NCBI GenBank assembly: GCA_947175285.1
Contig: CAMWMM010000124.1
Span: 1-10,378, forward strand
Reading direction: 5' to 3'
DNA length: 10,378 nt
Source: an uncultured Lachnospiraceae bacterium
Lineage (GTDB): Bacteria > Bacillota_A > Clostridia > Lachnospirales > Lachnospiraceae
This document shows, in pieces, positions 134-10,378 of this stretch. How positions within the stretch are numbered: the stretch's first letter is position 1; each line of letters begins with the position of its first letter. Under the pieces are notes generated by a model. The model was not told the origin of the DNA, ran no database searches, and worked only from the letters and a program-made list of their open reading frames with translations. Both the position numbers and the translations under genes were made by a program.

Positions 134-924
134 TACTAGTTGCTGCGGACAAAGCTTATGGCAGTATCAGGGAAGATATTAGGAAAATGGGGATAGATGA
201 AGGAAAAGTCGAAAGTCTTACTCACTATCTGGAAAAGGAGTATTCCCTTATAACAGACGGGCAAGTAGGGGGCATCAAGGAAATTCTGAGAGCATCTGAT
301 GACGAGGTAAAAAATTATGAGTGGATGTACCAGAAAATTGCAGAGTATGGAGTGTTTCCTTTTGAGCAAAATGTAGGATGTAATCATAACGACATTTTCT
401 GGTTCGCGCTGGGTGTATGTCAGACAATAGAAGAATTTACGCAATTTTGCAATTATATCAGTGGATTAACAATTGAGACGGCAATAGAGACAGGTGTGTT
501 CAGAGGAAGAAGTTCTTATCTGATGTGCACCTTACTTGTAAGAAAAAATCCGGATTTGCAGTATATATTGGTAGATATCAAAGACAATCTCAAAGAATAT
601 GACAGGTTTAAAGAGATATTACCATGGCTGGACAAACGAATACCAAGTACATCTGAAAATCACAGAGAACATAAGTTTGGCCTTGCGTTTATTGATGCGA
701 ATCATTCATATACAGCATCATATAGGGATTGTTTATACTGTGGGTAATATGCAAACAAGCTTACCGTGTTTCATGATATCTATTGTTATGAGTATGATAA
801 GCCTGATGGTGGGACGGTTCGTATGTGGGAGGAGGTTCTTGAGAAAACAAAGGAAGAGGGACACAGAATTTTTTCAAGCCATAACAGAAAATGGATGGGA
901 ATTGGTGTGGTAGAATGGAGAGAT
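134..924 (+). repeat. Direct repeat, copy 1 (methyltransferase segment)
   Basis: Bases 134-924 align without any gap to 4001-4791 at a constant offset of 3867. My hand count gives about 68 mismatches, or roughly 91 percent identity, and most differences are transitions. The differences cluster around 661-690 and 853-895. The repeat covers codon 69 to near the end of the methyltransferase and is in direct orientation. Confidence 0.95.
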
Positions 925-3798: not shown

Positions 3799-4809
3799 AT
3801 GAACAAGGTAAAAACAATGGAACAAATAATTATATGGGGAGCGGGTTCGGTATTTCATCAAAATCTGTTTGAAATCAGGCGAATGCTTCAAGACGGCGTA
3901 AATATAATAGCGCTTGTAGACCAAGGTAAAAAAGGCAGCGTTGTGGATGGATACAGGGTAATCGATAAACAGGAGATTGGGAATTATAACTGGGATAAAA
4001 TACTGGTTGCAGCGGACAAGGCCTATGACAGTATCAGAGAAGATATTAGGAAGATGAGGATAGATGAAGGAAAAGTCGAAAGTCTTACTCATTATCTGGA
4101 AAAGGATTATTCCCTTATAACAGACAGGCAAGTAGGGGTTATCAAGGAAATTCTGAGAGCATCTGATAACGAGATAAAAAATTATGAGTGGATGTACCGG
4201 AAAATTGCAGAGTATGGAGTGTTTCCTTTTGAGCAAAATGTAGGATGTAATCATAACGATATTTTCTGGTCTGCGCTGGGTGTATGTCAGACGATAGAAG
4301 AATTTACGGAATTTTGCAATTATATCAGTGGATTGACAATTGAGACGGCGATAGAGATAGGTGTGTTCAGAGGAAGAAGTTCTTATCTGATGTGCGCCTT
4401 GCTAGCAAGAAAAAATCCGGATTTGCAGTATGTATTGGTAGATATTAAAGATAATCTCAAAGAATATGACAGATTTAAAGAGATATTACCATGGCTGGAT
4501 AAACGAATACCAAGTACATCTGATGATTATAAAAAATGTAAGTTCGATTTTGTGTTTATTGATGCGGATCATTCATATACAGCATCATATAGGGATTATT
4601 TAAACTGTGGGCAATATGCCAACAAGCTTACCGTGTTTCATGATATCTATTGTCATGAGTATGATAAGCCTGATGGTGGGACGGTACGTATGTGGGAGGA
4701 GGTTCTTGAGAAAACAAAGGAGCAGGAACATATAATTTTTTCAAGTCATAATGCAAAATGGATGGGGATTGGCGTGATAGAGTGGAAAAATGATAATAGA
4801 GAATCCTAG
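3799..4809 (+). CDS. Rossmann-like module fused to a class I SAM methyltransferase (336 aa)
   Basis: The protein has two parts. Residues 9-90 form a nucleotide-binding-like module starting with IIIWGAGSVFHQNL (the G-x-G turn), then IIALVDQG and KILVAADKAY. It resembles the modules at the C-termini of both glycosyltransferases here. Residues about 160-330 are a SAM methyltransferase of the Methyltransf_24 type. Motif I is EIGVFRGRSS (186-195), followed by LVDIKD. The acidic motif is FIDADHSY (253-260), and VFHDIY lies at 279-284, followed by a GGTVRMWEEV segment. The likely reaction is methylation of a sugar hydroxyl or a related group on a nucleotide sugar or glycan. AAAGGTGA at 3787-3794 supports the start, though Met7 at 3817 is an alternative. 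It sits 44 bases after the carbamoyltransferase. A 791-bp decayed copy lies at 134-924, and a 67-bp scrap of its 3' end lies at 5913-5979. The substrate is not predictable. Confidence 0.85.
   Translation: MNKVKTMEQIIIWGAGSVFHQNLFEIRRMLQDGVNIIALVDQGKKGSVVDGYRVIDKQEIGNYNWDKILVAADKAYDSIREDIRKMRIDEGKVESLTHYLEKDYSLITDRQVGVIKEILRASDNEIKNYEWMYRKIAEYGVFPFEQNVGCNHNDIFWSALGVCQTIEEFTEFCNYISGLTIETAIEIGVFRGRSSYLMCALLARKNPDLQYVLVDIKDNLKEYDRFKEILPWLDKRIPSTSDDYKKCKFDFVFIDADHSYTASYRDYLNCGQYANKLTVFHDIYCHEYDKPDGGTVRMWEEVLEKTKEQEHIIFSSHNAKWMGIGVIEWKNDNRES
4001..4791 (+). repeat. Direct repeat, copy 2 (inside the intact methyltransferase)
   Basis: This is the intact partner of 134-924. Recombination between the two copies would delete about 3.87 kb, removing the SGNH remnant, the small gene and the carbamoyltransferase, and would leave one hybrid methyltransferase segment. 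Confidence 0.95.
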
Positions 4810-4846: not shown

Positions 4847-5062
4847 ATGTATAAAGAGTATTTGGAAGATTTTGTGATCAATGAAAACGAGAGTGTATAT
4901 AAAGCATGTTGGCAGTATCAAAGAAATAAGGAGGCATTATTGTTGGTAGTTGATTCTGATAATAAATTTAAAGGCGTTGTGGGTTCACAGGAGATTAAGA
5001 AAACCTTTTTAGACAATGCGGGGGGGGGTATGTTAAAGACATTTGTAATTGCAACGGAGTGA
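4847..5062 (+). CDS. N-terminal CBS part of a split, probably phase-variable methyltransferase (71 aa as read)
   Basis: The frame encodes most of a CBS-type half domain, with LLLVVDSDNKFKGVVGSQEIKK at residues 31-52 (a typical 'value, refined by variant' strand pair). It then enters a run of nine G at 5020-5028, after which the sequence MLKTFVIATE ends at a TGA (5060-5062). With one extra G, or two fewer, the frame would continue as YVKDICNCNGVKIICKEG into the next frame, giving one protein of about 353 aa. AAGGGAA at 4833-4839 gives a good ribosome site. As read, this is either a truncated off-state product or the first half of a pair of overlapping genes. The first reading is favoured, because a CBS domain cut after its first half makes little structural sense. 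Confidence 0.75.
   Translation: MYKEYLEDFVINENESVYKACWQYQRNKEALLLVVDSDNKFKGVVGSQEIKKTFLDNAGGGMLKTFVIATE
5020..5028 (+). repeat. Homopolymeric G9 tract at the frame junction
   Basis: Nine consecutive G residues occur inside the coding sequence of an otherwise AT-rich region; no other G run of this length is seen in the window. The tract lies in a small glycine stretch (NAGGG) between the two halves of a CBS pair. Seven or ten G would join the upstream and downstream frames; eight G would give a stop codon (TAA) about two codons later. This is the classic arrangement for slipped-strand phase variation. A sequencing or assembly error in the run is the main alternative. Confidence 0.85.
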
Positions 5063-5907
5063 AAATAATATGTAAAGAAGGGGAAGATTTTTATGCTGAG
5101 GGTAGAAATATCTTCGCAGAAAAAAGTATTAATTTTGTGCCGGTGATAGATTATGAAAATAATATTATTGATATGTTTTCAAGAAGACGTGCTTTTTTCA
5201 AAAATGCATATCGGGCTGGTGATTTGGAGCGAATGGTCTATGCAAGAAATATTTGGAAAATGGCAGAAGCGGCACAGCAAATAGGAATAAAAGAATTCAG
5301 TATAATTGAATTTGGTGTTGCGGGTGGAAATGGTCTTGTGGCGGCGGAATTTTATGCAAGGGAGATATCCAGGTTATTTGATCTAAAAATTGAAGTTTAT
5401 GGATTTGACAATGCCGCTGGACTGCCTGCAATAAAAGAGAATTATATTCAGAAAGAGATGCCATATTTATGGTATGGTGGATTGTTCGATTATATGAACA
5501 TTGAAAAACTGAATAAAAGGCTTAGGTCGGCGAAACTGATAATAGGAGATATTGAAGAAACATTAAAAGATTTTATTGAAGTTTTTCATCCGGCACCAAT
5601 TGGAGTTATATTTGTGGATGTAGACCAGTATGCTGGAACAGCAGCGATATTATCTTTTCTGGAGTCAGATGATAACAATTTTTTGCCACGTATGAATATT
5701 TATTTTGATGATATGAGTTTTGAGACTGAATCCAGGGGAGAGCATAGGGCTATTTTAGAGTTTAATCAGAGGAATACAAACATGAAGATTATCCCAGAAG
5801 ATTTGCGCACAAGAGAAAAGAGATGTTTTCGCTATCAGCATCCGTTATATGATAAAGAAATCAAGTATGATACAACAGCATGCGCATATTCTTATTATAC
5901 GATATAG
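5059..5907 (+). CDS. Second CBS half plus class I SAM methyltransferase (282 aa as read)
   Basis: Residues 1-45 carry the second CBS half (AEKSINFVPVIDYENNII). A helix follows ending in YARNIWKM (61-68). Residues 78-282 are a SAM methyltransferase: motif I EFGVAGGNG (84-92), GFDNAAGLP (115-123), GDIEETL (163-169), VIFVDVDQY (183-191) and IYFDDM (214-219). These features resemble TylF/MycF-type sugar O-methyltransferases, with the paired acidic residues expected for a metal site. The only start for this frame is a GTG overlapping the TGA of the upstream frame (GTGA). The GGAG there is too close to act as a good ribosome site, so independent translation should be poor unless coupled. I think the natural product is the fused protein of about 353 aa produced when the G tract length restores the frame. 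The substrate is probably a sugar of the same glycan; this is inference. Confidence 0.75.
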   Translation: MKIICKEGEDFYAEGRNIFAEKSINFVPVIDYENNIIDMFSRRRAFFKNAYRAGDLERMVYARNIWKMAEAAQQIGIKEFSIIEFGVAGGNGLVAAEFYAREISRLFDLKIEVYGFDNAAGLPAIKENYIQKEMPYLWYGGLFDYMNIEKLNKRLRSAKLIIGDIEETLKDFIEVFHPAPIGVIFVDVDQYAGTAAILSFLESDDNNFLPRMNIYFDDMSFETESRGEHRAILEFNQRNTNMKIIPEDLRTREKRCFRYQHPLYDKEIKYDTTACAYSYYTI

Positions 5908-5912
5908 AAAAT

Positions 5913-5979
5913 GAGGAGGTTCTTGAGAAAACAGTGGAACAGGGACATAATATTTTCTCAAGTTATAACGAATAATGGA
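5913..5979 (+). pseudogene. 67-bp scrap of the methyltransferase 3' end
   Basis: Bases 5913-5979 align without gaps to 4696-4762 of the intact methyltransferase, with the first 21 bases identical and about 11 mismatches in the rest. In the same frame it reads EEVLEKTVEQGHNIFSSYNE before a TAA at 5973-5975, compared with EEVLEKTKEQEHIIFSSHNA in the intact protein. The last bases of the scrap supply the ATG assigned to the next gene (5975), so the scrap also forms that gene's leader. It marks an old deletion or recombination joint. Confidence 0.88.
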
Positions 5980-7219
5980 AAAAGAACCCATGATATCAGT
6001 AATTATACCAAATTATAACAGGGAAATGGCTATCTGTGAGACGGTTCAGAGTGTATTGAATCAAAGTTATAAGAATATAGAGGTTCTGATTATTGACGAT
6101 GCATCCACAGACCGTTCTGTAGAAATGCTGGCAAAAGTGAAGGACAAAAGAGTCAGGTGTATTGTGCAAAAAGAACATAGAGGGGCAAGTTATTGCAGAA
6201 ATCTTGGAGTGAGTGAAAGCCAAGGGGAGTATCTTGCCTTTCAGGATAGTGGAACAATCTGGCTTCCCGACAAGTTGCAAAAACAGATGAAAAGATTAGA
6301 GAAAAGCCCGGAAGCAGGACTGGTTTATTGCCTTTTAGAGATAGATGATGGAAGCGATACTTATTGTAACCCGGAAAAAGAATATGAATTATGCTATAAA
6401 GAAGAAAAATGTAAAGAAATACTGAAAAAGAGAAATTTAATTGCTACGCCAACAATTTTGATGACACGAAAATGCTTTCTTGAAATTGGGGGATTTGACG
6501 AGAGACTTCTGCGATGGCAGGATTATGATCTGGTAATTCGGATAGTGCAGAGTTATAAAGTCGTTATTGTTAATGAGATATTAGTAAAAGAGCAATTTTT
6601 TGAGAATGGTATTTCAAATAAGTATGATCTTTTCATTCAGGCACTACCAATATTTTTGAAAAAGCATATAATTTTTTTTGCCTCAGAAATGAAAAATTTT
6701 GAACTTTTGGTAAACATTTTTTTCCGTATGCTTCAGCATGATAATCTCTCTTATGAAAATTACATAAAATTTATTTCAGAAATCAGCCGACAGTTGGAAC
6801 ATGACCTTGCTGATGTGGTTTATGTTTGTGCAGGAAAAGCATTGCAAAGAAAAGCAGCTTTGAGAGAACTGGGCAATCAACTGGTAGAATATAATTTTCG
6901 CTGTTTTATGCAGGAGGTACAAGAGGGAAGATACTTTGCCATTTATGGAATAGGAAATTATGCGTTAAGGATATTAAATGCATTGCGTATAATTAAATGC
7001 GAGGGACGTATACTAAGTATGATTGTTACAGAAAAAGGTGAGGAAAACTTCTTTGAGAATATTCCGATAGTAACAGTGGATGAATTTGAAGATAAAAAGA
7101 ATACGCCGGTACTAATAGGGACGGCGGATAAAACCCAGAAAGAAATATTTGATATATTATGTGAAAAAGGTTACAGAAAGATAATTATGTTTCAAAGTGA
7201 GTTTTTTCAAATCATATAA
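5975..7219 (+). CDS. Family 2 glycosyltransferase with C-terminal Rossmann-like module (414 aa)
   Basis: The N-terminal GT-A domain shows ISVIIPNYNRE (7-17), VLIIDDASTDRS, GASYCRNLGVSESQGEYLAF, and the acceptor-side RWQDYD (180-185) where the general base is expected. The usual D-x-D metal motif is altered: the segment reads FQDSGTIW (D91-S92-G93) where FQDSDDIW would be typical. The middle part (about 210-310) is helical and unassigned. Residues 319-414 form a nucleotide-binding-like module with YFAIYGIGNYALR. It should add a sugar from a nucleotide donor to the growing glycan at the cytoplasmic face. The start at 5975 lies inside the methyltransferase scrap and lacks a good ribosome site; Met6 at 5990, directly before ISVIIP, is an equally good candidate. 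GAGGAGG at 5913-5919 is too far upstream to serve either. Activity is uncertain because of the D-x-D change. Confidence 0.85.
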   Translation: MEKEPMISVIIPNYNREMAICETVQSVLNQSYKNIEVLIIDDASTDRSVEMLAKVKDKRVRCIVQKEHRGASYCRNLGVSESQGEYLAFQDSGTIWLPDKLQKQMKRLEKSPEAGLVYCLLEIDDGSDTYCNPEKEYELCYKEEKCKEILKKRNLIATPTILMTRKCFLEIGGFDERLLRWQDYDLVIRIVQSYKVVIVNEILVKEQFFENGISNKYDLFIQALPIFLKKHIIFFASEMKNFELLVNIFFRMLQHDNLSYENYIKFISEISRQLEHDLADVVYVCAGKALQRKAALRELGNQLVEYNFRCFMQEVQEGRYFAIYGIGNYALRILNALRIIKCEGRILSMIVTEKGEENFFENIPIVTVDEFEDKKNTPVLIGTADKTQKEIFDILCEKGYRKIIMFQSEFFQII

Positions 7220-7276: not shown

Positions 7277-9139
7277 ATGAATACAGAGGGGAAAGACTAT
7301 AATTTCATTCCTGTGAAGGACATGACATCAGTATATCGTATGTCTGATATTCAGGATTTACCTAAAATGGCATATCAGCATTTTATGAGTCATGAAAACG
7401 AGGTACTGTACATTTTAGTAACGAGGTGGGAGGGGCTGGAAGGCGTACTTTCCATTGGAGATTTGGAGCGTTTTTATGCAAACGGCAGGAAAGAATTAAT
7501 AGTAAACAGAAATTATACATTCATTACGGTTTTTGATTATGAGGCGGCGGATGACTTTTTTAAACGGGTGTCAACGGTTAACGAGATACCTGTTGTTATG
7601 GAAGATAGATTTATAGGGGTCATAAGAAAGTATAAAGAAAACTCTCAGAGAAATAGGCAGAGAAGGTCGTTAAAAAAAGCAAGAATGGACATATGGCAGA
7701 TGTCGAAAATGGAAATGCAGCGGTTTGTTAATGAAACAAAAGCAAAAGTTTTGATGTATACGTATTCAAGCACGGATATAATAGGACAAATGGAAGGGAA
7801 AGACTATGAGCGAGTTAAAAAAATGAAAGAAATGAAAAAAATAGAATCTTATGACTCGTGGCAGTGCCTTTCAATTGTAGAAAAAGAATTCTTTCAAGAA
7901 GAATATGAAGAAGGATTATGTGATATTATGCGAACAGAAAGCGGGAAATTTGAAATTTCGATAATAAATGGAATCATGAAGATTTCAGATATGGAATATA
8001 AATGTTTTCGCTATGCGGAGGGCTGTCGTATTACTGAGAATAATCCACCAGAAGCTGATAGAAGAATACTATTTTTTGGACCGTGTATTGTATTTGGAGC
8101 TTTTTGCAAGAGTGAACATACAATAGAGTCTTATTTGCAGGATTGTTTATTGGAAAATGGTTATATGGAATGGAAAGTTTTAAATAAGGGCCAATATGAT
8201 GCTAAAAACATGGACTGCTGGTATGGATCGCTTTTTGCAGAGGAATTGTCGGAGGATGACATTGTTGTAATAATTGTGCAGGATAATAAAGAGATATTAA
8301 ATATTGAAGGAACTGTTAATTTAGCCGATCTATCAGAGGAATTTATGAAGATTCCATCATTATCTAGATATATTGTAGATGACATAGCGCATTGTAATTA
8401 TATTGTGAATCAAAGATTAGCAGAGCGAATTTATAAAGACATTTATACAACTGGTTTACTGGAACAACCCAAAAACTCAGGAAAGCCGGAAAGAATCCAG
8501 GATTATTACATTAATTTGGGTATCAGGAAATATTTTGTGGATTATTTTGAACAGTATGAATTATATAAAAATGAAAGTGATGTTAAAGTCGGTTCAATCG
8601 TTATGAACTGCAATCCTTTTACCAGGGGCCATCGCTATCTGATCGAACAAGCGCTTATGAAAGTGGACAAGCTGTATGTATTTGTTGTTGAGGAAGATAA
8701 GTCCTATTTTAAATTTACAGATAGAATAAAAATGGCGGAAGCAGGGGTGGCGGGGCTGGCTGATGTCCGGGTTGTTCCTTCAGGTAAATATATTTTATCC
8801 AAAGATACCTTTGCCCAATATTTTGAAAAAAACCAGGTCGAAGTAGTGGAAAGTATGGATTATGACCTTCGTATTTTTGGGGAAGTGGTGGCGGCAGAGT
8901 TGGGTATTAAATACCGTTTTGTGGGTGAGGAGCCTTTTGATAAAGTAACGAGAGAGTATAACAAGACTATGAAGCGTATCCTGCCAGAATATGGAGTGGA
9001 TGTGGTGGAAATTCCAAGGATGCAAGAAGGCTTGGATGTTATTAGTGCAACATCCGTAAGGAAAGCTTTGCAAGAAGAGGATTGGGAGATGATTGCAAAA
9101 CTTTGTCCGAAAACTACGCTGAGGTATTTAAAACAGTAA
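7277..9139 (+). CDS. CBS pair + SGNH-like + citrate-lyase-ligase-type nucleotidyltransferase fusion (620 aa)
   Basis: Residues 40-118 look like a CBS pair: VLYILVTRWEGLEGVLSIGDL, then EIPVVMEDRFIGVIRK. A helix ends in ARMDIWQM, similar to ARNIWKM in the protein at 5059-5907. Residues about 135-260 are unassigned. Residues 263-430 begin RRILFFGPCIVFG, an SGNH-like fold opening with GPC (268-270) where active hydrolases have GDS. Residues 438-620 form an HxGH-type nucleotidyltransferase of the citrate lyase ligase (CitC) kind: VMNCNPFTRGHRYLIEQA (442-459) with T-x-GH at 449-452, and ISATSVRKAL (589-598). Such domains adenylate or cytidylate a small acid or phosphate substrate. No citrate lyase genes are present, so a role in activating a group for glycan decoration is more likely. 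No good ribosome site precedes the ATG, and upstream in-frame codons suggest a lost start. Substrate unknown. Confidence 0.8.
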   Translation: MNTEGKDYNFIPVKDMTSVYRMSDIQDLPKMAYQHFMSHENEVLYILVTRWEGLEGVLSIGDLERFYANGRKELIVNRNYTFITVFDYEAADDFFKRVSTVNEIPVVMEDRFIGVIRKYKENSQRNRQRRSLKKARMDIWQMSKMEMQRFVNETKAKVLMYTYSSTDIIGQMEGKDYERVKKMKEMKKIESYDSWQCLSIVEKEFFQEEYEEGLCDIMRTESGKFEISIINGIMKISDMEYKCFRYAEGCRITENNPPEADRRILFFGPCIVFGAFCKSEHTIESYLQDCLLENGYMEWKVLNKGQYDAKNMDCWYGSLFAEELSEDDIVVIIVQDNKEILNIEGTVNLADLSEEFMKIPSLSRYIVDDIAHCNYIVNQRLAERIYKDIYTTGLLEQPKNSGKPERIQDYYINLGIRKYFVDYFEQYELYKNESDVKVGSIVMNCNPFTRGHRYLIEQALMKVDKLYVFVVEEDKSYFKFTDRIKMAEAGVAGLADVRVVPSGKYILSKDTFAQYFEKNQVEVVESMDYDLRIFGEVVAAELGIKYRFVGEEPFDKVTREYNKTMKRILPEYGVDVVEIPRMQEGLDVISATSVRKALQEEDWEMIAKLCPKTTLRYLKQ

Positions 9140-9222: not shown

Positions 9223-10378
9223 GTGAACACGTTGGTTAGTATTGTCGTACCGATTTACAATGCAAAAGAATACTTGCATAAGTGTGTTGATAGCATTATA
9301 AAACAAACATATGAAAATATTGAGCTTATTCTTGTAGATGATGGCTCCCAAGACGGTTCTGCTTTATTATGTGATGAACTGGCGGAATCAGATAAGCGTA
9401 TTATTGTGATGCATAAAAATAATGGAGGATTGGTCACGGCCCGGAAAGCGGGATTGAGACAGGCAAGGGGAAAATATATTTTAAATGTGGACAGTGATGA
9501 TTGGATTGAAAAGGATATGGTAGAACAGCTTTTGGCAGCAGCAGAGCAAAACGATTCTGATATCGTTACATCTGGATATTACGAGGAAACATTAGAATAT
9601 ACCATTAAGCAGACTGATACGCTTCCTGAAGGAAATTATAATACTGAAGAAGAAAAGCTCTATTTGTACCGACATATGGTACGGAATGGTATGCGGCGCG
9701 GCATGAATGTACCAATTTGGTGCAAACTGGTAAAAAGTAATATTATGCGTGAAATCTATCTGGAAATGAGCGATGAAATCCGTGTGGGGGAGGATGCAGC
9801 ATTTATATATAGTTGTCTGGCTTTGGCAGATAAAATTACAATTTCACACAATGCGTATTATCACTATATGGTTCGGGAAGGAACCATGTCAAGAAGCAGA
9901 AACAGGTATTATTATAGGGAAATAAATGATGTAATACTATTTATAGAGAAAAATTTTGAAAAAAATAAATATAGAGAATTTTTAAAAGAGCAGCTGGATT
10001 ACCATACAATTGTATTATGCTTGCTTGGAATGGAAAAATTTTTTGGACTTGAGAAAGCGTTTTTGATTCCCAGATATTGGTTCCCACAGAGAGAACTGAT
10101 TATGGGTTCAAAACTTATTATTTATGGGGCCGGTGTAGTAGGTAAATCTTATTATAAAAAAATAAAAATGGAAAAACTGTATGAAGTAGTATGCTGGGTA
10201 GATAAAAAATATTTATATTATCAGAAACAGGAAATGGCCGTTTTTGCACCGGAAGAGGTAGTGAAGAGAGAGTACGATTATATTTTACTAGCGTTAAAGA
10301 ATGTAGAATTGGCAGAACCCGTGAAAAGTGAATTGATAGAAAAATATCATGTAGAAGAAAACAAAATATTATGGTATG
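9223..10378 (+). CDS. Family 2 glycosyltransferase with C-terminal Rossmann-like module, partial at right edge
   Basis: The frame starts at GTG 9223 and is open for 385 codons to the window edge. The GT-A domain is complete: SIVVPIYNAKEYL (6-18), LILVDDGSQDGS, a canonical D-x-D in NVDSDDW (88-94), and GEDAAF (189-194) with the expected catalytic acid, followed by a YHYMVREGTMSR segment. This pattern is common in capsule and teichoic-acid-like glycosyltransferases. From about residue 295 a nucleotide-binding-like module begins with LIIYGAGVVGKSYYKK, then VVCWVDKKY and YDYILLALKN. It is the third such module in the window and the closest in layout to the N-terminus of the protein at 3799-4809. 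Unlike the glycosyltransferase at 5975-7219, all catalytic motifs look intact. The carboxy end is not seen, so further domains are possible. It probably adds a sugar to the same glycan; donor and acceptor are unknown. Confidence 0.9.
   Translation, partial: MNTLVSIVVPIYNAKEYLHKCVDSIIKQTYENIELILVDDGSQDGSALLCDELAESDKRIIVMHKNNGGLVTARKAGLRQARGKYILNVDSDDWIEKDMVEQLLAAAEQNDSDIVTSGYYEETLEYTIKQTDTLPEGNYNTEEEKLYLYRHMVRNGMRRGMNVPIWCKLVKSNIMREIYLEMSDEIRVGEDAAFIYSCLALADKITISHNAYYHYMVREGTMSRSRNRYYYREINDVILFIEKNFEKNKYREFLKEQLDYHTIVLCLLGMEKFFGLEKAFLIPRYWFPQRELIMGSKLIIYGAGVVGKSYYKKIKMEKLYEVVCWVDKKYLYYQKQEMAVFAPEEVVKREYDYILLALKNVELAEPVKSELIEKYHVEENKILWY

What the first reader, a model, noticed from the sequence alone, without database searches (positions are those of the whole stretch)
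4847..5907. Candidate phase-variable CBS-methyltransferase controlled by a G9 tract
The 71-aa and 282-aa frames are the two halves of one protein. Changing the G run at 5020-5028 from nine to ten or seven fuses them into about 353 aa, and the joined reading (NAGGG, then YVKDICNCNGVKIICKEG) continues the CBS pair naturally. Long G runs inside coding sequence in AT-rich genomes are typical contingency loci for surface glycan variation. If true, the cell would switch one methyl decoration of its surface glycan on and off, or release a CBS-free enzyme by weak coupling at the GTGA overlap.
Basis: partly seen in the sequence, partly recalled or inferred. Interest (0 to 1): 0.82.

Follow-up and report, generated by a model that had tools for sequence, protein, structure and literature searches.

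The report
Poly-G switch in sugar-methylation gene
A gut bacterium's gene for a probable sugar-methylating enzyme is cut in two at a run of nine Gs, most likely because that run can grow and shrink and so flip the enzyme on and off, and sister species carry many similar runs, often in surface-sugar genes.

Summary
In detail: nine G lie at 5020-5028, where the 71-aa and 282-aa frames meet. The nine closest full-length relatives listed (72-84% identical) each encode one unsplit CBS-methyltransferase of 347-355 aa. The downstream GTG is V, I or K in them, so this is one gene caught out of frame. The model of a relative joins a CBS pair to a sugar O-methyltransferase fold (CalS11, MycF, NovP).

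A slipped-strand switch is the best explanation, but reads were not available, so switching is inferred. The genus supports it: runs of nine or more G split frames in 19 of 91 cases, against 11 of 294 for runs of 5-7. Two gene pairs have one copy open and one split: ten versus eleven G at about 96% identity, and nine versus ten G at 71%.

Against it: this genome has only five such runs, near extrapolation; one relative is a dead gene broken at the same site; decay or an assembly error cannot be excluded. Poly-G switching is well known; ten literature searches listed none for Lachnospiraceae.

The parts
4847..5062 (+). First frame (71 aa): N-terminal CBS motif of the gene, ends just after the G run
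   Evidence: PF00571 E 6e-4, below the curated cut-off
5020..5028 (+). Run of nine G, candidate slipped-strand contingency tract; encodes a glycine loop between the two CBS motifs
4999..5907 (+). Second frame, open from 4999 (listed as 282 aa from the GTG at 5059): second CBS motif and methyltransferase domain
   Evidence: fold of the relative P0003
1454..1792 (+). Small protein (112 aa); one resembling it by eye follows the carbamoyltransferase in L021
1910..3754 (+). Carbamoyltransferase (614 aa), neighbour of the CBS-methyltransferase also in L021
3799..4809 (+). Second methyltransferase (336 aa), C2185-like N domain plus Methyltransf_24
5975..7219 (+). Family 2 glycosyltransferase (414 aa)
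7277..9139 (+). 620-aa protein with citrate lyase ligase C-terminal (nucleotidyltransferase) domain
9223..10377 (+). Family 2 glycosyltransferase, runs off the window

Best explanation
5020-5028 is a poly-G contingency tract inside one gene for a CBS-regulated sugar O-methyltransferase. Slipped-strand mispairing at replication changes the number of G. In one of the three phases the halves are read as one protein of about 352 aa that adds a methyl group to a sugar of the surface polysaccharide made by this locus; in the other two phases translation stops soon after the run and no working enzyme is made. The assembly shows an OFF state. Shown: the split at the run, unsplit relatives, conserved residues in both halves, glycan-type neighbours, and the same arrangement with open/split pairs in the genus. 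Inferred: slippage in this strain, the sugar that is methylated, and the benefit (escape from phages or antibodies).
For: Frame change exactly at the run. Nine unsplit relatives at 72-84%. 14 of 14 and 88 of 89 columns invariant in 15 unsplit relatives are kept in the two halves. The run lies in a loop where close relatives differ in length (P0002 against P0003). In this genome runs of eight or more G sit at frame splits in 4 of 12 cases against 5 of 156 for runs of 5-7 (p 0.0016, or 0.013 with a doubtful case dropped). In the genus, 19 of 91 runs of nine or more are at splits, against 11 of 294 for runs of 5-7 and 95 of 3000 random places. Length differs between open and split copies of two genes: L067/L081 and the GDPD-like gene of this genome against G016.
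Against: No reads, so no length variation shown in this strain. Long G runs are few in this genome (5) and close to extrapolation from shorter ones. A close relative (P0122 with P0020) is broken at the same site with an interrupted run and has lost 106 residues of its core; P0123 is broken elsewhere. The intact G027 gene has no G run at the site, so the run is not ancestral. L045 and L061, 87-88% identical, have the same length and are both split, which shows no switching.
Confidence: 0.72

Rival explanations
1. Plain decay: a one-way frameshift in a dispensable gene. The G run is only where the slip happened, and the gene is being lost.
For: P0122/P0020 and P0123 are broken relatives; the window also holds a broken copy of the neighbouring methyltransferase; long G runs are not in excess in this genome.
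Against: 102 of 103 invariant residues are kept and the rest of both frames is open; frame splits are concentrated at long G runs here and in the genus. A very recent loss would look the same.
Confidence: 0.13
2. Assembly or sequencing error: the real run is in frame and fixed, and the draft miscounts it.
For: Draft of 504 contigs with poly-G artefacts at contig ends; a published case of a G run in a gut commensal had a reference length that differed from the main population (PMC9187656, passages).
Against: None of 23 runs of seven G in the stretches read from this genome sits at a split, but runs that long are easier to read. Split runs are common also in better assembled genomes of the genus, where 51 of 91 long runs are open through the run.
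Confidence: 0.08
3. Two separate proteins: a CBS half and a methyltransferase half, coupled at GTGA.
For: One close relative has the same two-frame layout, 71 aa plus a frame that starts at the same place. Remote relatives of about 271-297 aa look CBS-free by length and precomputed Pfam.
Against: The nine close full-length relatives are unsplit; the GTG codon is not conserved; GGAG abuts it; the split lies inside a CBS pair; the second half of the two-frame relative has lost 106 residues.
Confidence: 0.03
4. Programmed ribosomal frameshifting or transcript slippage at the G run makes some full-length enzyme from the nine-G gene without a DNA change.
For: Homopolymers can slip during transcription or translation (general knowledge; PMC3711429 passages, name runs of A or T as characteristic).
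Against: The run is absent in intact G027 and its length varies between open and split homologs elsewhere in the genus, which fits a change in DNA.
Confidence: 0.04

Closest known systems
Campylobacter jejuni cj1426 capsule heptose 6-O-methyltransferase with poly-G phase variation (PMC8437040, passages read)
   Same: A sugar methyltransferase gene of a surface polysaccharide locus interrupted by a poly-G run whose length sets ON or OFF
   Different: Switching measured there (rates near 2e-2 in that paper), only inferred here; Gram-negative; a CBS part is not mentioned in the passages read; no sequence comparison was made
Bifidobacterium breve G-tract pilus switch (PMC9187656, abstract and passages read)
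   Same: Gut commensal, intragenic G run, two frames joined or split by run length
   Different: Pilus genes, one or two loci per strain, in Actinobacteria; lengths counted in populations and in mice
TylF/MycF/NovP/CalS11-type sugar O-methyltransferases
CBS pair of MJ0100 (bound to SAM and methylthioadenosine)
   Different: 18% identity; ligand of the present pair untested; other CBS pairs match nearly as well

Membership tests
Slipped-strand (poly-G) phase-variable gene | Long G run inside the coding sequence at the point of frame change | tested here: met
Slipped-strand (poly-G) phase-variable gene | Intact full-length form exists | tested here: met
   In relatives at 72-84%; no intact allele nearer than 84% was listed among 120 of 201 hits
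Slipped-strand (poly-G) phase-variable gene | Run length varies within the strain or species | not testable with these tools
   No reads and no second isolate. Between species it varies for two other genes
Slipped-strand (poly-G) phase-variable gene | Surface-structure function | tested here: inconclusive
   Glycan-type neighbours and a sugar O-methyltransferase fold; target not shown
CBS domain protein | Two CBS motifs in tandem | tested here: met
   PF00571 precomputed in 8 of 9 close unsplit relatives; profile and fold matches to CBS pairs. The window's first half alone is below the cut-off
TylF-type sugar O-methyltransferase | SAM-methyltransferase fold nearest to sugar O-methyltransferases | tested here: met
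   Top rows
TylF-type sugar O-methyltransferase | Curated family score | tested here: not met
   The C half has no Pfam match above cut-off; PF05711 is not listed and the best is Methyltransf_24 at 14.6 against 26.3. It works like one by fold and is not filed in that family
TylF-type sugar O-methyltransferase | Methylates a sugar hydroxyl | not testable with these tools
   Needs enzymology or sugar analysis
Translationally coupled gene pair | Conserved start of the second gene | tested here: not met
   V in 3, I in 5, K in 1 of nine close unsplit relatives

The most novel reading that the evidence does not exclude
This gene belongs to a genus-wide poly-G contingency repertoire in Lachnospiraceae: several species carry 20 to about 50 runs of nine or more G, some clustered in glycan and decoration loci, so that one cell line could present a very large number of surface-sugar variants, on the scale known from Campylobacter but in Gram-positive gut commensals. 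Here the switch cuts a regulatory CBS pair, so methylation would be under both small-molecule sensing and random switching.
Probability: 0.5. Interest if true: 0.75.

Novelty: new member of a known kind. Interest (0 to 1): 0.58.

Why it matters
Poly-G contingency genes are best known from pathogens such as Campylobacter and, among gut commensals, from Bifidobacterium. A Lachnospiraceae genus with dozens of such runs, several in methyl-, acyl- and glycosyltransferase genes, would give a testable source of surface variation in abundant gut bacteria under phage and antibody pressure. It would also mean that some 'split' or 'truncated' genes in their draft genomes are switches, not pseudogenes. 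It can be tested with reads that already exist.

Tried and rejected
Tried without result: the search for related loci in genome contigs with P0003 found no relative; with alignment A2 it gave only L021 and a remote L022. At E 1e-20, P0003 in 397 family genomes and A2 in 391 class genomes matched only this genome; P0003 in 38 genus genomes matched this genome, G027 and, weakly, G030. A DNA search of the gene in the same 38 gave one long match besides itself, G027, and three short ones. The DNA of P0002-P0010 could not be fetched, so whether they have a G run at the site is unknown. A CBS link to the 620-aa neighbour, suspected from its N terminus, was not confirmed (best E 0.017).

Rejected: two conserved proteins. 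An excess of long G runs in this species. Counting contig-end poly-G (C418, C472, C439) as tracts. A common DNA element after the runs: TAT follows 37 of 86 runs, but in the GDPD-like gene the place is a Gly-Gly-Tyr protein motif, so a protein cause is likely for some; not pursued. P0122 as an independent OFF allele of the switch: its peptide RGEG means the G run is interrupted, and its apparent C half P0020 lacks 106 residues. That P0122 and P0020 share a contig is inferred from the same longest-contig length, 33194.

Rows dropped before counts: L063, L064 and L068 (G-rich contig ends); runs within 300 bases of a locus end, which removes C118:106 of this genome. One search also has a class 'split or opposite-strand gene', not counted as split: 1 of 91, 1 of 16, 0 of 40, 1 of 29, 4 of 225 and 145 of 3000. 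Of 103 pieces, 86 went to (left out: 13 own-genome pieces, two L049 entries, L058, one overlapping L123 piece); 10 of the 13 own pieces went. The split thresholds were mine, set after seeing the first cases, and most loci were fetched because they hold long runs.

Full report
Observation. The run of nine G at 5020-5028 and the two frames are as described. The 71-aa frame ends at 5062, in the GTGA where the 282-aa frame is said to start. The downstream frame is open from 4999, so the change of frame lies between 4999 and 5062. Homology puts it at the run: the N half matches relatives up to LD, and YVKDICNCNG, read straight after the run in the other frame, matches them on the far side.

One gene, not two. 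A search with the C half gave 201 proteins (120 listed). The nine closest full-length ones (P0002-P0010, 72-84% identical) are 347-355 aa and unsplit, eight of them with a precomputed CBS domain. With the window's halves kept as separate rows, 14 of 14 (N) and 88 of 89 (C) columns that are invariant in 15 unsplit relatives are kept. At the GTG position the nine have V three times, I five times and K once, and GGAG abuts the GTG without spacing. A conserved pair of proteins is therefore unlikely. The run lies where close relatives differ in length: P0002 has DGGGRTL where P0003 has GGLL. In the model of P0003 (mean pLDDT 81) this is a loop, residues 53-60, behind the last helix of the first CBS motif.

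Is the run a switch? This genome has 26 runs of exactly seven G, 8 of eight and 5 interior runs of nine or ten. Poly-G at contig ends is treated as artefact. The decline is nearly geometric, so long runs are not in excess here. Their place is: in the stretches read, 4 of 12 runs of eight or more G sit at a frame split, against 5 of 156 runs of five to seven and 0 of 23 runs of seven (p 0.0016; with the C123 case dropped, where the run may stand just before an ABC ATPase start, 3 of 12 and p 0.013). Besides the window gene they include a GDPD-like gene (C397, ten G) and a family 2 glycosyltransferase (C29, eight G).

The genus. Of 38 same-genus genomes, 31 have a run of nine or more G. Forward plus single-count reverse hits sum to 298 runs, 11 of 38 genomes having ten or more, among them G030, which includes a G-rich contig end. 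The highest are G032 (48), G033 and G034 (29 each), G035 (23) and G016 (21). Of 397 genomes drawn from the family, 253 have at least one and by my count 27 (one of this genus) have ten or more, contig ends included. In seven genus genomes the counts for seven/eight/nine or more G are G032 27/8/48, G033 17/6/29, G034 13/3/29, G035 18/6/23, G016 18/6/21, G017 26/6/17 and the window's own 26/8/5. Six show a second peak at nine or more, and the window's own does not. These six were chosen because they have many long runs.

A frame test on all fetched loci gave splits at 19 of 91 runs of nine or more, 3 of 16 of eight, 1 of 40 of seven, 2 of 29 of six, 8 of 225 of five and 95 of 3000 random places (p 1.4e-6 for nine or more against five to seven). 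51 of the 91 are open through the run. Of 86 pieces of run-bearing frames scanned against Pfam, seven matched Methyltransf_11 and seven Methyltransf_12 (the sets may overlap), five Acyl_transf_3, three Radical_SAM, and two each MBOAT, glycosyltransferase 2 and WcbI; 25 of 50 families were shown, and Dam, Big_2 and DUFs also occur, so the genes are not all glycan genes. One cluster, G033:C6, has ten runs on one strand within 26 kb; nine run-bearing frames read there include radical-SAM, epimerase, nucleotidyltransferase-kinase, methyltransferase and DUF6056/DUF6020 proteins.

Open/split pairs. L067 (G029) and L081 (G001) are 95.5% and 96% identical over 400 bases on either side of the run; the first has ten G and an open frame, the second eleven and a split one. 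The GDPD-like gene has ten G and is split in this genome, and has nine and is open in G016, at 71% identity with the run in the same place. L045 and L061 (87-88%) both have nine G and both are split. These pairs show length change with effect on the frame between species, not within a strain.

Evidence against. A search with the N half found three proteins: the window's own, P0122 (71 aa, 88%) and P0123 (125 aa, 74%). P0122 ends in RGEG..., so its G run is interrupted, and its C half appears to be P0020, which lacks 106 residues (94-199 in P0003 numbering), from the second CBS motif through the SAM-binding part. It is a dead gene broken at the same site. P0123 is broken elsewhere. The intact gene of G027 has no G run at the site, so the run is not ancestral. 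Decay and assembly error remain open.

Literature. Ten searches, eight of them with a Lachnospiraceae, Firmicutes, Clostridia, Clostridium or Eubacterium term, listed no paper that by title or shown abstract start describes poly-G phase variation in Lachnospiraceae. Listings were cut at 20 of 38 and 20 of 107, and most subscription papers are not held. I read passages, not whole texts, of PMC6437147, PMC12413058, PMC3711429, PMC8355987, PMC9187656 and PMC8437040. Closest are the cj1426 methyltransferase of C. jejuni, Campylobacter species with more than 50 phase-variable genes and the B. breve G-tract pilus switch.

Verdict. A good poly-G contingency candidate, most likely a working switch of a known kind in a lineage where I found none described, with switching itself still to be seen in reads.

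Noticed in passing
window 134-919 against 4001-4786: A gapless 91.6% copy of the neighbouring methyltransferase gene (3799-4809), with a stop at 745-747 and an unrelated first 133 bases: a broken duplicate on the other side of the carbamoyltransferase.
   Followed up: partly
G033:C6:107778-133791 (L148, L149): Ten runs of nine or more G on one strand within 26 kb, in radical-SAM, epimerase, methyltransferase and membrane-type genes among others.
   Followed up: partly
G183 (same family, 1.6 Mb, 68% complete): 126 runs of nine or more G, by far the most of 397 family genomes; the places shown are scattered along its contig C1. Not looked at.
   Followed up: no
L045-L124 tracts: Long G runs are followed by TAT in 37 of 86 cases and preceded by C in 42 of 86; a Gly-Gly-Tyr protein motif explains some, a shared cause is open.
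   Followed up: no
G000:C418:4716-4809 and G000:C118:60-115: C418 shares 45 identical bases with C118 and then ends in 47 G just where C118 has its ten-base run, like the 'G's end' Illumina failure at G tracts described in PMC9187656 (passages). By eye the C118 gene looks like an acyltransferase 3.
   Followed up: partly
G000:C437:15017 and G000:C123:4200: Runs of eight G just upstream of a family 2 glycosyltransferase and of an ABC ATPase start, where length could alter expression rather than frame.
   Followed up: no
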